DNA of 48,991 nt from Nitrospirota bacterium (GTDB taxonomy: Bacteria > Nitrospirota > Nitrospiria > Nitrospirales > UBA8639): the NCBI GenBank assembly GCA_027623995.1, contig JAQBUF010000024.1, forward strand, positions 1-48,991, given 5' to 3'. Below are positions 6,521-10,791 of this stretch, one piece after another (positions within the stretch are counted from its first letter, which is position 1; every line of letters begins with the position of its first letter). Below the pieces are notes generated by a model. The model was not told where the DNA came from. It did no database searches and was given only the letters and a program-made list of their open reading frames with translations. Position numbers and translations under genes: made by a program.

Positions 6521-7585
6521 TCATGTGGGTATATTACCAAGTTGCCCACATGCTCCCAAGATATCCCTCCCACGACTCTTTCTCAGAAACACATCATACT
6601 GTCCTTGCCGTAAGATAGCCTGAAAATTTTCAATGGCCGCATCGGACGGACGGCGAAATGGGCTACCTGGAAATTCATTAAACGGGATAAGGTTGATTTT
6701 GCATTGAATGCCGTGAAGTAGGTGAATAAGTCGCTTGGCATCATCAGGAGAATCATTCTCACCGCTTAACAACACATATTCAAAGGTCAGTCGCCGATTG
6801 GGGTCTAAGGGGTAGGCTCGGCAAGCCTCTAAAAGTTCTGGTAACGGGTGCAGTTTATTCATCATTGGCATGAGATGATCCCGCTGGGCGTTCGTGGAAG
6901 CATTGAGGGAGACCGCGAGATTAATTCCTAATCCAGCGACGGCCTTTAATCGAGGTGCAAATCCCGCAGTGGAGATGGTAATTCGTCGGGCAGGGATGCC
7001 CAAGCCCCATTGGGTATTCGTGAGCCGCGTGACCGCTTCGGTTACCGCATCGACATTGGCAAGAGGCTCCCCCATTCCCATAAACACCAGTGAGGTGATT
7101 CGTTCGCCTTCTGCGAGCAAATCTTGGGCGGTCAGCACCTGCTCCACGATTTCATGGGCCTTGAGATTTCGCTTCAATCCCATTTGACCAGTTAAACAAA
7201 AACTGCAATCCACAGTACACCCCACTTGCGTGGAGATACACAATGTCAATCTAGGGTCATCGGGGATGAGCACACTTTCAATGGCTAGACCGTTTTCCAG
7301 AGAAAATAAGAGTTTGCGTGTTCCATCTTGTGAATTGACGACTGTTGGAGCTTTGGCCCGGTCGATCATTGAAATGGATTGTAGGCGTTCTCGATCTTTT
7401 TTCGAGAGGTTGCTCATTAAGGATATTTTTTTTGCTCGATGTTGGTACAGCCATTGGAGAATTTGTTTGGCCCTAAACGCTGGCCATTCTAATTGAGCAA
7501 CGAGATTTGATATTTCAATAGATGTCATGGCCAGCAAGTTTTGGTGTGAATCGTTAACAATTGGTAGCGTTTGAGGCAATGACAT
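6521..7585 (-). CDS. rlmN: 23S rRNA (adenine2503-C2)-methyltransferase RlmN
   Basis: This 354-residue radical SAM enzyme methylates A2503 of 23S rRNA and A37 of some tRNAs. The CxxxCxxC cluster is Cys123-Cys127-Cys130 (GCTVDCSFCLTG). GMGEPL, SLNAS, and a C-terminal GACGQL with the resolving cysteine are present. The length is usual for the family. The annotated ATG has no good ribosome-binding site, and Met20 is an alternative start. The gene is monocistronic in appearance, between repeat copy 1 and an AT-rich gap. Confidence 0.95.
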   Translation of the reverse strand: MSLPQTLPIVNDSHQNLLAMTSIEISNLVAQLEWPAFRAKQILQWLYQHRAKKISLMSNLSKKDRERLQSISMIDRAKAPTVVNSQDGTRKLLFSLENGLAIESVLIPDDPRLTLCISTQVGCTVDCSFCLTGQMGLKRNLKAHEIVEQVLTAQDLLAEGERITSLVFMGMGEPLANVDAVTEAVTRLTNTQWGLGIPARRITISTAGFAPRLKAVAGLGINLAVSLNASTNAQRDHLMPMMNKLHPLPELLEACRAYPLDPNRRLTFEYVLLSGENDSPDDAKRLIHLLHGIQCKINLIPFNEFPGSPFRRPSDAAIENFQAILRQGQYDVFLRKSRGRDILGACGQLGNIPT

Positions 7586-7957
7586 AAGACTGAACTTACT
7601 ATAACTAAGTGTTTTTCAACAAGAAATCGTTGAACATTCGAGCCACTTCATATTGGTCGAATGCAATGTGAATATTTCCCCTCATTTATATTCTGTTCTT
7701 CATAAAATGGTGATGAAATATATCAATCCCAAGTATTGTGGTATCAGAGCACTCACTACTAAATGTTGGCTTGAATACTTGTATGAACTAAAATTATGTA
7801 TAAAAAATGAGTTTTTGATATGTGAATTTTATCTATATTTATACAATGATTTTATTTGATATTAAAAAAGCATGAATAAATATATAAGTTTTGCTTTAAA
7901 TTTTTTATTGACACATGTTATTTTGGATGATAAAAGCAAGCAAGAATTACTTAAAGC
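7586..7957. other. AT-rich intergenic region
   Basis: About 370 bp that are far richer in A and T than the neighbours, especially 7700-7950. A 68-codon open frame inside has no ribosome-binding site and a composition driven by AT content, so I do not call it. The right end holds a promoter-like sequence for the HARE-HTH gene. Confidence 0.6.
7908..7936 (+). promoter_or_regulatory. Promoter-like sequence for HARE-HTH gene
   Basis: A perfect TTGACA (7908-7913) is followed after 17 bases by TAAAAG (7931-7936), about 22 bases before the ATG. The -10 match is only partial, and the surrounding AT-richness makes chance matches common. Confidence 0.35.
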
Positions 7958-8467
7958 ATGCTAATGGATATTCAAAAAGACGAAATGAAGGATATAGTCG
8001 TTGGCTTAGAGCAACGGATCACTGCCTATGAAACAAAGTTCAAGGACCTGAAAAAAAAGAGGGAGCGACTCAATGAAGAAATTGCGACCATTGAGAAATA
8101 TTTGGAGCTGGCAAAAACCCTTTACCGCGTTGAAGCCGATAAAGCGAAATTGGCTAGCCTGTCGAGTCAGATTCTTACAGATGAAACGGCCAACCCGCCG
8201 GTGCCGGTAACGGATGTCACGGACCAATCTCGTGAGATTCTTCTTGGTCGAAGTAAGTACGTAGGCATGAGTGTTTCAGACGCTGCTTACAAGATTCTAC
8301 TGGGCACTCAACGGCCCATGCATGCCAAGGAATTGTATCAGGCTTTATTGGCCGGGGGTATGCAGATTCGTGGAAAAACACCTGTCACTTCAGTGTCGAC
8401 ATCTTTAAAACGTGATCCTCGTTTTCGAAAAGTTGCTCCAAATACCTTTGAGGGCTTGGATGAATAG
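7958..8467 (+). CDS. Coiled-coil protein with C-terminal HARE-HTH domain
   Basis: In this 169-residue protein, residues about 10-70 form a charged coiled coil (repeated Lys/Glu heptads). Residues about 105-165 match the winged-helix HARE-HTH fold (MSVSDAAYKILLG, PMHAKELYQALLAGG, SVSTSLKRDPRF), known from bacterial RNA polymerase delta, restriction enzymes and eukaryotic HB1/ASXL proteins. It probably dimerises and binds DNA. An H-NS-like architecture (oligomeriser plus DNA binder) is an inference. It stands upstream of two lysine-rich histone-like genes. The start may be Met1 or Met3; neither has a strong ribosome-binding site. Confidence 0.75.
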   Translation: MLMDIQKDEMKDIVVGLEQRITAYETKFKDLKKKRERLNEEIATIEKYLELAKTLYRVEADKAKLASLSSQILTDETANPPVPVTDVTDQSREILLGRSKYVGMSVSDAAYKILLGTQRPMHAKELYQALLAGGMQIRGKTPVTSVSTSLKRDPRFRKVAPNTFEGLDE

Positions 8468-8514
8468 GAGCGCTCCCTCACGTAAGCGGTGTGAGGATTG
8501 TAAGGAAGGATAAC

Positions 8515-8619
8515 ATGTCATCTCACAAGGAGATGGTCAATAGTTCTCAAATCAAGAGAACCAACCAAGTGCAAAATTTCACAGGCATTTATTACGTTAT
8601 GGATTCTCAATGTCTTTGA
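8515..8619 (+). CDS. Possible 34-residue small protein
   Basis: An ATG follows GGAAGG at five bases and opens a 34-codon frame that ends before the first lysine-rich gene. The product begins MSSHKEMVNSSQIKR and has no recognisable domain. Only the ribosome-binding site and position support it. It could also be untranslated leader. Confidence 0.25.
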   Translation: MSSHKEMVNSSQIKRTNQVQNFTGIYYVMDSQCL

Positions 8620-8689
8620 ACACAACACAAAAGAGTTAGGTCCATGGTCAGAAAACTATTCACATCATTTAGGAGAGGGGGTGAGCGAA

Positions 8690-8833
8690 TTGGCAACAGC
8701 AAAGAAGAAAGCACCGGCGAAGAAAGCAACACCGGCGAAGAAAGCAACAGCTAAGAAAAAAGCACCGGCGAAGAAAGCAACAGCCAGGAAAAAAGCACCA
8801 GCCAAGAAAAAGGCGCCAGCCAAGAAAAAATAG
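8690..8833 (+). CDS. Lysine/alanine-rich histone H1-like protein, copy 1
   Basis: This 47-residue product is built almost only of Lys, Ala, Pro and Thr in KKAPAKK/KKATAKK repeats, like the C-terminal tails of histone H1 and of bacterial HctB/AlgP-type proteins. It should bind DNA or other polyanions non-specifically. I place the start at TTG 8690 because the paralog at 9745 has the same spacing (GGGGGTGA versus GGAGGTGA, then six bases, then TTG) and both then give exactly 47 residues. GTG 8681 is an alternative. A perfect 11-bp hairpin follows. No globular domain is present. Confidence 0.7.
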   Translation: MATAKKKAPAKKATPAKKATAKKKAPAKKATARKKAPAKKKAPAKKK

Positions 8834-8858
8834 TAACCCGCCTTTCGTACTCTCATCG

Positions 8859-8886
8859 CTGGGAGTAGAGAATAATCTACTCCCAG
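8859..8886 (+). terminator. Perfect hairpin after lysine-rich gene 1
   Basis: CTGGGAGTAGA pairs perfectly with TCTACTCCCAG across a six-base loop, 25 bases after the stop codon. A pyrimidine-rich CCATCTCTCTC stretch follows rather than a T-run, so it may stabilise the 3' end or terminate weakly. Confidence 0.55.
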
Positions 8887-9102
8887 CCATCTCTCTCTTC
8901 ACCATAGACATTTCTCCTCAGCAATCATGGTTGCTTGTTTATGATTGCCAAATTCCACCGTTCAGGCGCTTCACTAAATCATCAAAAATTATTTCACTAA
9001 GGGCATGCCTCCTTTCTCGTTGGAGTCAGCTGAAAGGTTCATGCCCAAGACCCCAGGATGCTAGAAATCGGACGACCCGCATCTGTAAGAGGGAATGATA
9101 AA

Positions 9103-9264
9103 CAATGTTCACCTTGTAAGACCGTCGCTATTCCCGGTCTTTGTCGCTACTTCGGCGGAGTAGGCTTGGCGCGAGGGTTCTACCTTGAGTATGTGAGCAA
9201 GGCAAAAGGGTGACCGTGTTTGGTCGAAGTCAGGGAACGCTGCTAGCGAAAGTTTTTAACATTT
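9103..9264 (+). repeat. Structured repeat family 2, degenerate copy 2
   Basis: Blocks in the same order as the intact copies can be recognised: AATGTTCA at the left, a GAGTATGTGAGCAAGGCAAA block in the middle, and GGGAACGCTGCTAGCG followed by a T-rich AACATT end. Many substitutions separate it from copies 3 and 4, so it looks like an old decayed copy. Confidence 0.5.
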
Positions 9265-9673
9265 TTTGTTGAAAAAAAAGTGGTAAATAATCTATGGGGA
9301 TGCCTCCCACTTGAATCGATTGCTAGGAGGAGGAAGAAGAAATTTATACAACGAAACCCCTGCAGAAAACCAATGGAAGAGTGACAAAATACGAAAGTGC
9401 TTTCTCAGTAGAACTCAAGGCTTTCACATCGCACACAAAAGAAAAATATTGAACGAATTTAATTATTGAGTGACGTGAAAATTTACTTCAGTTTTACCGC
9501 GTCAGGTAAATAAATAAATTTTATTCAGATCTTGAAGTAAGGATTGAGCAGGAAATTTTTCTTTAGAAAATGTTTTATTTGGCAACACTGGTTTTAATTT
9601 TTTTTGTGATGAAGAAAAAAACATTGAAAAAACTTTTTTAAAAGAGTAAGTAACAACCATCCATTGTGGTACA

Positions 9674-9693
9674 CACTCATGAAATCATGAGTG
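9674..9693. promoter_or_regulatory. Perfect palindrome upstream of lysine-rich gene 2
   Basis: CACTCATGA and TCATGAGTG are perfect inverted arms around AA, 51 bases before the TTG start. This could be an operator for a dimeric repressor or a leader hairpin. No equivalent is seen before copy 1. Confidence 0.4.
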
Positions 9694-9744
9694 AACATGC
9701 AGACCACGTTGTGTCGGAAAGAGATCTGAAAGGAGGTGAGACTG

Positions 9745-9888
9745 TTGCCGACAGCAAAAAAGAAAGCGCCGGCTAAGAAGGCCGCAAAGAAAAAAGCACC
9801 TGCTAAGAAAAAGGCTCCTGCCAAGAAAAAGGCTCCTGCTAAAAAGAAAGCACCAGCCAAGAAAAAAGCGACGTCAAAAAAGAAATAA
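9745..9888 (+). CDS. Lysine/alanine-rich histone H1-like protein, copy 2
   Basis: This 47-residue paralog of the product at 8690 has more regular KKKAPA repeats (about five in a row) and ends ATSKKK. A strong AAGGAGGT ribosome-binding site precedes the TTG start by six bases; the upstream GTG overlaps this site and cannot be the start. It is a predicted nucleoid-associated or polyanion-binding protein. It is followed by a canonical intrinsic terminator, so it forms its own short transcription unit. On the opposite strand the repeats create a long Phe/Ala frame that I regard as an artefact. Confidence 0.75.
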   Translation: MPTAKKKAPAKKAAKKKAPAKKKAPAKKKAPAKKKAPAKKKATSKKK

Positions 9889-9912
9889 TAACGACGCACC
9901 TGCCTTAAATAC

Positions 9913-9953
9913 ACGGTGGAAGAGGGGCTCCCTTCTTCCACCGTTGTTTTTTT
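9913..9953 (+). terminator. Intrinsic terminator after lysine-rich gene 2
   Basis: ACGGTGGAAGA pairs with TCTTCCACCGT (11 bp, ten-base loop), followed by TGTTTTTTT. This is a textbook rho-independent terminator 25 bases after the stop codon. Confidence 0.85.
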
Positions 9954-10044
9954 GCCTATATATCTTTATCTCTTACTGAAGAAACTTCTCTAGGAAAAAA
10001 ATATTCATTGGGGCTATCCCTTTGGTCCCAGAGCCACAAAAAAG

Positions 10045-10791
10045 ATGCAAGTTATTCATCCACTCGCGCTACGTCCTGCCGTGATTGCTTCAGTTCCTTA
10101 TCTAACTTATGAGGAGTCTCAAATAATCCAACATCATTTTTGCGACGCACGGATCGCGGGCAATCGGAATGATATGTTGATTCTTTTGGAGCATGACTCA
10201 GTGTTCACGCTTGGTCGTACGACGAAAGACGTGCATTGGGATGGACAGGTTGAAGATCTGAGGAGTCAAGGAATTCAGGTCATTGAAGTCGAGCGTGGTG
10301 GATCGGTTACGTATCACGGACCAGGACAGATTGTAGGATATCCAATTCTGCGTCTACGAAATTATTGCGCTGGCCCAAAAGCGTACATGCGTATGTTGGA
10401 AGAGGTCCTCATTCGTGTGTTGGCGGAATGGGAGATTGAAGGGCAACACGTCGAAAAGTTTGTGGGGGTGTGGGTGCGTGATCCAAACAGTCCAGAAGGG
10501 CCATTAGCCAAGATCGCAGCAATGGGAGTGAAGATTTCTCGCGGTGTGACGATGCATGGCTTCGCGTTAAATGCGTCGGTAGATCTTAACCCGTTTCAAT
10601 TGATCGTGCCGTGTGGCATTGAGGGCTGTAGGGTAACTTCGATGGCTGAGGTGTTAGGCCGTAAGCCTGATTTAGAAAAAGTCCGCGAGCAGATCGCGCA
10701 TCATTTCTCGGAAGTGTTTGGTATTGAGTGGATAGAAAGATTAACTGATTTTCCCCTCACCCTTCCCTTTCCCCATACTGGTGGAAAGTAA
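10045..10791 (+). CDS. lipB: Octanoyl-[acyl carrier protein]-protein N-octanoyltransferase
   Basis: This 248-residue LipB moves octanoate from ACP to lipoyl domains, the first step of endogenous lipoate synthesis. Family motifs are VERGGSVTYHGPGQIVGYPI, the acyl-accepting-site lysine in AKIAAMGVKISR, MHGFALN, and the catalytic cysteine in VPCGIEGC. The length is normal. No lipA lies nearby. The gene seems to be transcribed alone, converging on the SDR gene with a 30-bp gap. The ribosome-binding site is weak. Confidence 0.93.
   Translation: MQVIHPLALRPAVIASVPYLTYEESQIIQHHFCDARIAGNRNDMLILLEHDSVFTLGRTTKDVHWDGQVEDLRSQGIQVIEVERGGSVTYHGPGQIVGYPILRLRNYCAGPKAYMRMLEEVLIRVLAEWEIEGQHVEKFVGVWVRDPNSPEGPLAKIAAMGVKISRGVTMHGFALNASVDLNPFQLIVPCGIEGCRVTSMAEVLGRKPDLEKVREQIAHHFSEVFGIEWIERLTDFPLTLPFPHTGGK

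What the first reader, a model, noticed from the sequence alone, without database searches (positions are those of the whole stretch)
7958..9953. Possible nucleoid-protein zone: HARE-HTH coiled-coil protein plus two H1-tail-like proteins
A coiled-coil/winged-helix protein is followed within 2 kb by two 47-residue KKAPAKK proteins with separate transcript ends, next to AT-rich DNA. HARE-HTH domains are tied to chromatin in eukaryotes and H1-like tails condense DNA, so together they could form a chromatin-organising or AT-rich-DNA-silencing set.
Basis: inference. Interest (0 to 1): 0.6.

Follow-up and report, generated by a model that had tools for sequence, protein, structure and literature searches.

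The report
Winged-helix protein plus lysine-rich peptide operon
Nitrite-oxidising Nitrospira bacteria and their relatives carry a conserved gene pair, one for a DNA-binding-type protein and one, just behind it, for a tiny, extremely positively charged lysine peptide as short as 11 to 12 amino acids, and the tiny peptide gene survives even where the larger gene has been lost.

Summary
A 167-residue coiled-coil + HARE-HTH protein (7964-8467) lies upstream of two 47-residue Lys/Ala/Pro polycations (8690-8833, 9745-9888). In 119 of 122 distinct relatives from four Nitrospirales families, other Nitrospiria families and one further Nitrospirota class, the HARE gene is followed (median 51 nt) by a Lys-rich ORF with a GG(A/G)GGTGA ribosome site. 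The other three are N-interrupted or cut by a contig end; the control is 0 of 1525 other genes. The peptide is 11-113 residues (often MATKKAAKKKKK), always lacks acidic residues and varies synonymously. The unit ends in a hairpin. Its promoter is AT-rich and, in Nitrospiraceae, carries a near-unique palindrome. In Nitrospiraceae the HARE gene decayed four times independently, while the 12-residue peptide ORF, its ribosome site and hairpin stayed. So the peptide has a function of its own and HARE is a dispensable partner or regulator. The predicted HARE domain resembles the Rok DNA-binding domain and RNA polymerase delta. A nucleic-acid-binding, nucleoid-type role is the best reading; chromatin silencing by the set is unproven. 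The second peptide (9745) is a duplicate restricted to the window's family.

The parts
7908..7936 (+). promoter of the operon: TTGACA (7908-7913), 17 nt, TAAAAG (-10 like); relatives have TTGACA-N17-TATAAA
   Evidence: element present upstream of HARE in the relatives listed; recognisable forms also in HARE-decayed loci
7933..7962 (.). candidate operator: AAAGCAAGC (7933-7941) and AAAGCATGCT (7953-7962), imperfect form of the palindrome AAAGCAAGCATGCTTT of Nitrospiraceae
   Evidence: <=2 mismatches to the palindrome in 50 of 60 loci L132-L191 against about 1% of random stretches; nearly single site per genome in Nitrospiraceae. The window's own copy is degenerate.
7964..8467 (+). coiled-coil (residues 2-74) + HARE-HTH winged-helix protein, 167 aa (ORF listed from 7958)
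   Evidence: Pfam PF05066; orthologues in 55 of 60 near relatives; AlphaFold2 model pLDDT 81.8
8690..8833 (+). lysine-rich peptide 1: ribosome site GGAGAGGGGGTGA just upstream, TTG start, 47 aa, net +21; member of the conserved pair
8855..8890 (+). hairpin ending the HARE-peptide unit (15 bp arms, no T run here)
   Evidence: hairpin stem of at least 10 bp after the peptide stop in 110 of 116 distinct relatives
9636..9744 (+). leader of peptide 2 with ribosome site AAAGGAGGTGA, closely conserved in the sister genome although the rest of the intergenic region is not
9745..9888 (+). lysine-rich peptide 2: TTG start, 47 aa, net +23; duplicate found in several members of the window's family only
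9913..9944 (+). intrinsic terminator of peptide 2 (14 bp stem, T run)

Best explanation
This is a two-gene operon of a nucleoid/transcription type. Shown by sequence: a coiled-coil + HARE-HTH winged-helix protein is followed by a separate ORF for a polycation (no acidic residue, about 50% Lys) with a near-perfect ribosome site, behind one AT-rich promoter region and before one hairpin. Inferred: the winged-helix protein oligomerises through its coil, binds DNA and represses or tunes its own promoter through the AAAGCAAGC/GCTTGCTTT-type site. The peptide acts as a diffusible, H1-tail-like polycation that binds DNA (or RNA) without sequence preference and is made in excess because of its ribosome site. 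The peptide is the part kept longest: it persists without HARE in four lineages. In the window's family it has lengthened by KAPAKK repeats and duplicated (9745), which would raise the dose. Steps not shown: DNA binding by either product, co-transcription, and any physical contact between the two.
For: Pair in 119 of 122 distinct loci, control 0 of 1525, ribosome site GG(A/G)GGTGA in 119 of 119. In the f20 class most peptide starts lie 6 nt after the HARE stop, and in L222, L225, L226 the peptide begins at the HARE stop, so one transcript is likely. Pair kept in different neighbourhoods: lpxC in several families, rlmN/lipB in the window's family, others in f4. Peptide is coding: 12 different DNA sequences all encode MATKKAAKKKKK. 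HARE lost four times on the LpxC tree with the peptide ORF intact. Palindrome near the promoter, nearly the only such site in a Nitrospiraceae genome, decayed in three of the four lineages without HARE. C-terminal fold closest to winged-helix nucleic-acid binders; top Foldseek hit is the Rok DNA-binding domain; HARE half pI 10.1. KPAA-type peptides of AlgP bind DNA in vitro (PMC9239181).
Against: No DNA-binding, expression or localisation data. A 12-residue polycation may bind RNA, ribosomes or polyphosphate instead. Peptide retention without HARE speaks against an obligate complex. Fold match to Rok is modest (E 4.6e-3) and delta, forkhead and other winged helices score alike. The operator in the window itself is degenerate.
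Confidence: 0.48

Rival explanations
1. RNA-polymerase module. The HARE domain sits on RNA polymerase like the delta subunit, and the lysine peptide is a separately encoded counterpart of delta's lysine tract, tuning promoter complexes or RNAP recycling.
For: HARE-HTH is the Pfam family of delta (the control genomes that ring include B. subtilis); a delta chain is the second Foldseek hit and delta heads the VIA-align rows (Z 8.4). B. subtilis delta has a Lys tract KAKKKKAKK right after its HARE domain whose mutation changes transcription (PMC9136928), much like MATKKAAKKKKK.
Against: Here HARE is C-terminal behind a coiled coil, and there is no acidic tail, the hallmark of delta (PMC7749165). 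The palindrome at the promoter fits a site-specific DNA binder better. The peptide outlives HARE.
Confidence: 0.2
2. Regulator plus RNA- or polyanion-binding peptide. The peptide serves ribosomes, rRNA or polyphosphate, and HARE is only the local repressor of the peptide gene.
For: Peptide kept in four lineages after HARE loss, while the operator usually decayed. The near-single-site palindrome argues for local control. AlgP, a KPAA protein, sits on polyphosphate granules (PMC9239181).
Against: HARE is conserved strongly (61-92% identity across the order, 73% mean column identity), more than expected of a local repressor; no ribosome or polyphosphate gene in the neighbourhood.
Confidence: 0.26
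3. Not a protein function: the short lysine ORF and the hairpin are a regulatory RNA element or leader, translated only to control transcription or mRNA decay.
For: Very short in Nitrospiraceae; a hairpin follows it almost everywhere.
Against: Only synonymous differences among 12 versions of the same 12-mer. The next gene in Nitrospiraceae, lpxC, is convergent, so there is nothing downstream to attenuate. Repeat-length growth up to 113 residues stays in frame and acid-free.
Confidence: 0.05

Closest known systems
Rok of Bacillus subtilis (xenogeneic silencer)
   Same: Similar size (191 against 167-180 aa), N-terminal oligomerisation region and C-terminal winged helix (PMC6212790); top Foldseek match of the model.
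   Different: No sequence relationship shown; no lysine peptide partner known to me; binding to AT-rich DNA not shown here.
Delta subunit of RNA polymerase (RpoE, Firmicutes)
   Same: HARE-HTH domain (PF05066); lysine tract next to the HARE domain (PMC9136928); best VIA-align Z.
   Different: Delta has HARE at the N terminus and a long acidic tail; here a coiled coil precedes HARE and the basic tract is a separate gene.
AlgP / PhaF and chlamydial Hc2 (bacterial H1-like proteins)
   Same: Lys/Ala/Pro-rich repeats of variable length, positive, presumably disordered (PMC9239181, PMC2848022).
   Different: Those are tails or long proteins; here the whole protein is 11-113 aa, in an operon with a winged-helix gene, and matches no Pfam model.
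Eukaryotic linker histone H1
   Same: Winged-helix domain plus Lys/Ala/Pro-rich tail; the H1x globular domain is among the fold matches (Z 7.7).
   Different: Two separate proteins, HARE-type winged helix with a coiled coil; analogy only.

Membership tests
HARE-HTH domain proteins (PF05066) | Pfam model above its gathering score | tested here: met
   35.8 bits against 25.9; 33.5 bits in the genome search
RNA polymerase delta subunit | HARE domain at the N terminus | tested here: not met
   HARE spans residues 104-164 of 169, after a 70-residue coiled coil
RNA polymerase delta subunit | long acidic disordered C-terminal tail | tested here: not met
   The chain ends within about 15 residues of the HARE domain; protein pI 9.0-9.5
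RNA polymerase delta subunit | binding to RNA polymerase beta' jaw/shelf | not testable with these tools
   needs pull-down or structure
Rok / H-NS-like xenogeneic silencers | N-terminal oligomerisation region + C-terminal DNA-binding domain | tested here: met
   model: helix 2-74, linker, winged helix 88-167; heptad pattern. Layout only; oligomerisation not shown.
Rok / H-NS-like xenogeneic silencers | sequence homology to Rok, with the N-T-R minor-groove residues | not tested
   only the fold match was obtained; no residue comparison made
Rok / H-NS-like xenogeneic silencers | preferential binding and silencing of AT-rich DNA | not testable with these tools
   needs ChIP-seq or binding arrays; its own promoter is AT-rich
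Bacterial H1-like Lys/Ala/Pro proteins | Lys/Ala/Pro-dominated, acid-free low-complexity sequence | tested here: met
   K 49%, A 32%, P 8%, no D or E in any peptide
Bacterial H1-like Lys/Ala/Pro proteins | match to a curated family model | tested here: not met
   no Pfam hit up to E 1; only NCBIfam Rv3852 at 0.059, far below its cut-off. Low complexity makes this a weak test.

The most novel reading that the evidence does not exclude
A split H1/delta-like system in which the lysine tail of a winged-helix nucleoid or transcription protein is supplied in trans as one of the shortest conserved protein-coding genes of bacteria (11-12 residues). The peptide, not the winged-helix protein, is the core of the system and keeps working alone after repeated loss of its partner.
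Probability: 0.3. Interest if true: 0.78.

Novelty: new variant of a known kind. Interest (0 to 1): 0.62.

Why it matters
Nitrospira carry out nitrite oxidation and comammox worldwide, and no paper found here describes a nucleoid system specific to them. A 12-residue gene kept across an order and through four losses of its operon partner is a clean natural experiment on what a minimal polycation does in a bacterial cell. A gene of that size is easily missed by annotation. It also gives a testable case of a chromatin-like tail encoded apart from its DNA-binding domain.

Tried and rejected
Rfam scan of 7500-10100: nothing near a gathering score. PDB search by sequence with the HARE profile: only coiled-coil chance matches. 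Viral contigs and plasmids: no relative found, so no sign of phage or plasmid carriage. Leader/attenuator reading rejected for Nitrospiraceae because the next gene, lpxC, is convergent. A first detector wanted GGAGG-like ribosome sites and missed GGGGG ones, which made the pair look absent in 35 named loci; corrected. A pattern with a frame slip is not used; its repair also missed a true positive (G223), so whether f7/f9 genomes without HARE keep the peptide is undecided. A regulon of the palindrome was looked for and not found. Other phyla were not surveyed: the one genome-contig scan returned only Nitrospirales/Nitrospirota-type records among its best 80.

Full report
Observation. The window lies in contig 32 of a 3.13 Mb genome whose relatives are Nitrospirales. 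The ORF at 7958 (true start probably 7964, where relatives begin) holds a HARE-HTH domain above the Pfam cut-off behind a 70-residue coiled coil. Two TTG-started 47-residue polycations follow at 8690 and 9745. A hairpin follows the first (8855-8890) and a canonical terminator the second (9913-9944). The 350 nt before the HARE gene are the most AT-rich of the window.

Linkage. A near-relative search found the HARE orthologue in 55 of 60 genomes, full-length matches at 61-92% identity. In every such locus examined, a Lys-rich ORF behind a strong ribosome site follows. Over 122 distinct loci the detector finds it in 119; two of the rest are interrupted by N runs inside the lysine ORF and one ends at a contig edge. 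The same detector finds nothing behind 1525 other long ORFs of the same loci. The pair spans four families of the order, several other families of the class and a further class (f20) of the phylum. Most f20 loci have a gap of 6 nt, and in L222, L225 and L226 the peptide starts at the HARE stop codon, so an operon is the natural reading. In the window the gap is 222 nt. Neighbours differ: lpxC is convergent in the f2, f3, f5, f6, f7, f8, f10 and f20 loci looked at, rlmN and lipB (or an inositol monophosphatase) flank it in the window's family, other genes in f4. The pair has therefore stayed together when its surroundings changed.

The peptide. Length runs from 11 to 113 residues (median 18), TTG start in 109 of 119, no Asp or Glu anywhere. 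In Nitrospiraceae the commonest 12-residue form is MATKKAAKKKKK; twelve different DNA versions encode exactly this, differing only at synonymous sites, so the protein sequence is what is conserved. In the window's family it has grown by KAPAKK repeats of variable number (33-64 residues within one genus) and a second copy has appeared (9745 here). In genus g9 of the same family a second copy lies elsewhere in the genome. A hairpin of at least 10 bp follows the stop in 110 of 116 distinct loci, with differing stem sequences.

Control region. The loci listed have a TTGAC(A/T) element about 50-65 nt before the HARE start, in DNA far poorer in GC than the locus (32% against 53%, lower in 144 of 144). 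In Nitrospiraceae the start region carries AAAGCAAGCATGCTTT: at most two mismatches in 50 of 60 loci against about 1% of random stretches. In the three Nitrospiraceae genomes searched it is found at the HARE promoter, with a single additional weak site in one of them. The window has a degenerate form. Autoregulation is inferred, not shown.

Loss of HARE. Six Nitrospiraceae genomes without an intact HARE gene (G185, G191, G197, G228, G233, G282) still hold the peptide ORF with ribosome site and hairpin at the orthologous place, with HARE remnants of various length before it in some. A recognisable TTGAC-N17-TATAAA promoter remains about 350-440 nt upstream in the g22 genomes and weaker forms in the others; the palindrome has decayed in g22, g21 and g24 and is mostly kept in g26. 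An LpxC tree places these six in four separate lineages, and the well-supported branches force four changes. The peptide therefore has a function that does not need HARE. G207, G231 and G272 showed neither gene by pattern, which is a weak test.

Fold. The AlphaFold2 model (pLDDT 81.8, low between residues 75 and 92) is a long helix, a linker and a winged helix. Foldseek's best match is the Rok DNA-binding domain (E 4.6e-3), then an RNA polymerase delta chain. VIA-align puts delta, forkhead and other winged helices within one Z unit, so the fold says winged helix and no more. The domain layout is that of Rok (PMC6212790), the domain family that of delta (PMC7749165). Delta carries a lysine tract, KAKKKKAKK, behind its HARE domain (PMC9136928), a striking parallel to the peptides here.

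Conclusion. Its core is a HARE-HTH gene and one lysine peptide; the second peptide is a local duplicate. I favour a DNA-binding, autoregulated winged-helix protein with a polycation that binds nucleic acid and is retained for its own sake. A delta-like role on RNA polymerase, or an RNA/polyphosphate role of the peptide, are live rivals. Limits: no functional data; other phyla not surveyed; the operator test rests on Nitrospiraceae; loci were not sampled evenly over the phylum.

Noticed in passing
window 9014-9263: The stretch between the two lysine genes holds pieces of a dispersed repeat: 12 further partial copies (69-78% identity) occur in the same genome, and most of the stretch is missing in the sister genome.
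   Followed up: partly
window 8465-8500: The HARE protein has lost its C-terminal ~9 residues (the sister genome ends ..DEQDRSLTRAV) through an in-frame TAG and a second stop; the tail LTxAV is common elsewhere.
   Followed up: partly
L248, L250, L252, L253, L254, L256 (G233, G185, G191, G228, G197, G282): Four independent losses of the HARE gene in Nitrospiraceae with the 12-codon lysine ORF left intact behind the old promoter region.
   Followed up: yes
L246 (G228:C1:892598-892816): A different HARE-HTH protein (300-codon frame) elsewhere in a genome that lost the operon copy.
   Followed up: no
L095, 33-175 nt downstream of the HARE stop: Two tandem mini ORFs (MPAKKKAAKKKR and MPAKKKAAKKKK), each with its own ribosome site: duplication also in family f2.
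   Followed up: no
L102, L103, L104, L109: An extra, longer KAPAKKK peptide gene at a second, unlinked place in genomes of genus g9; its neighbours were not identified.
   Followed up: no
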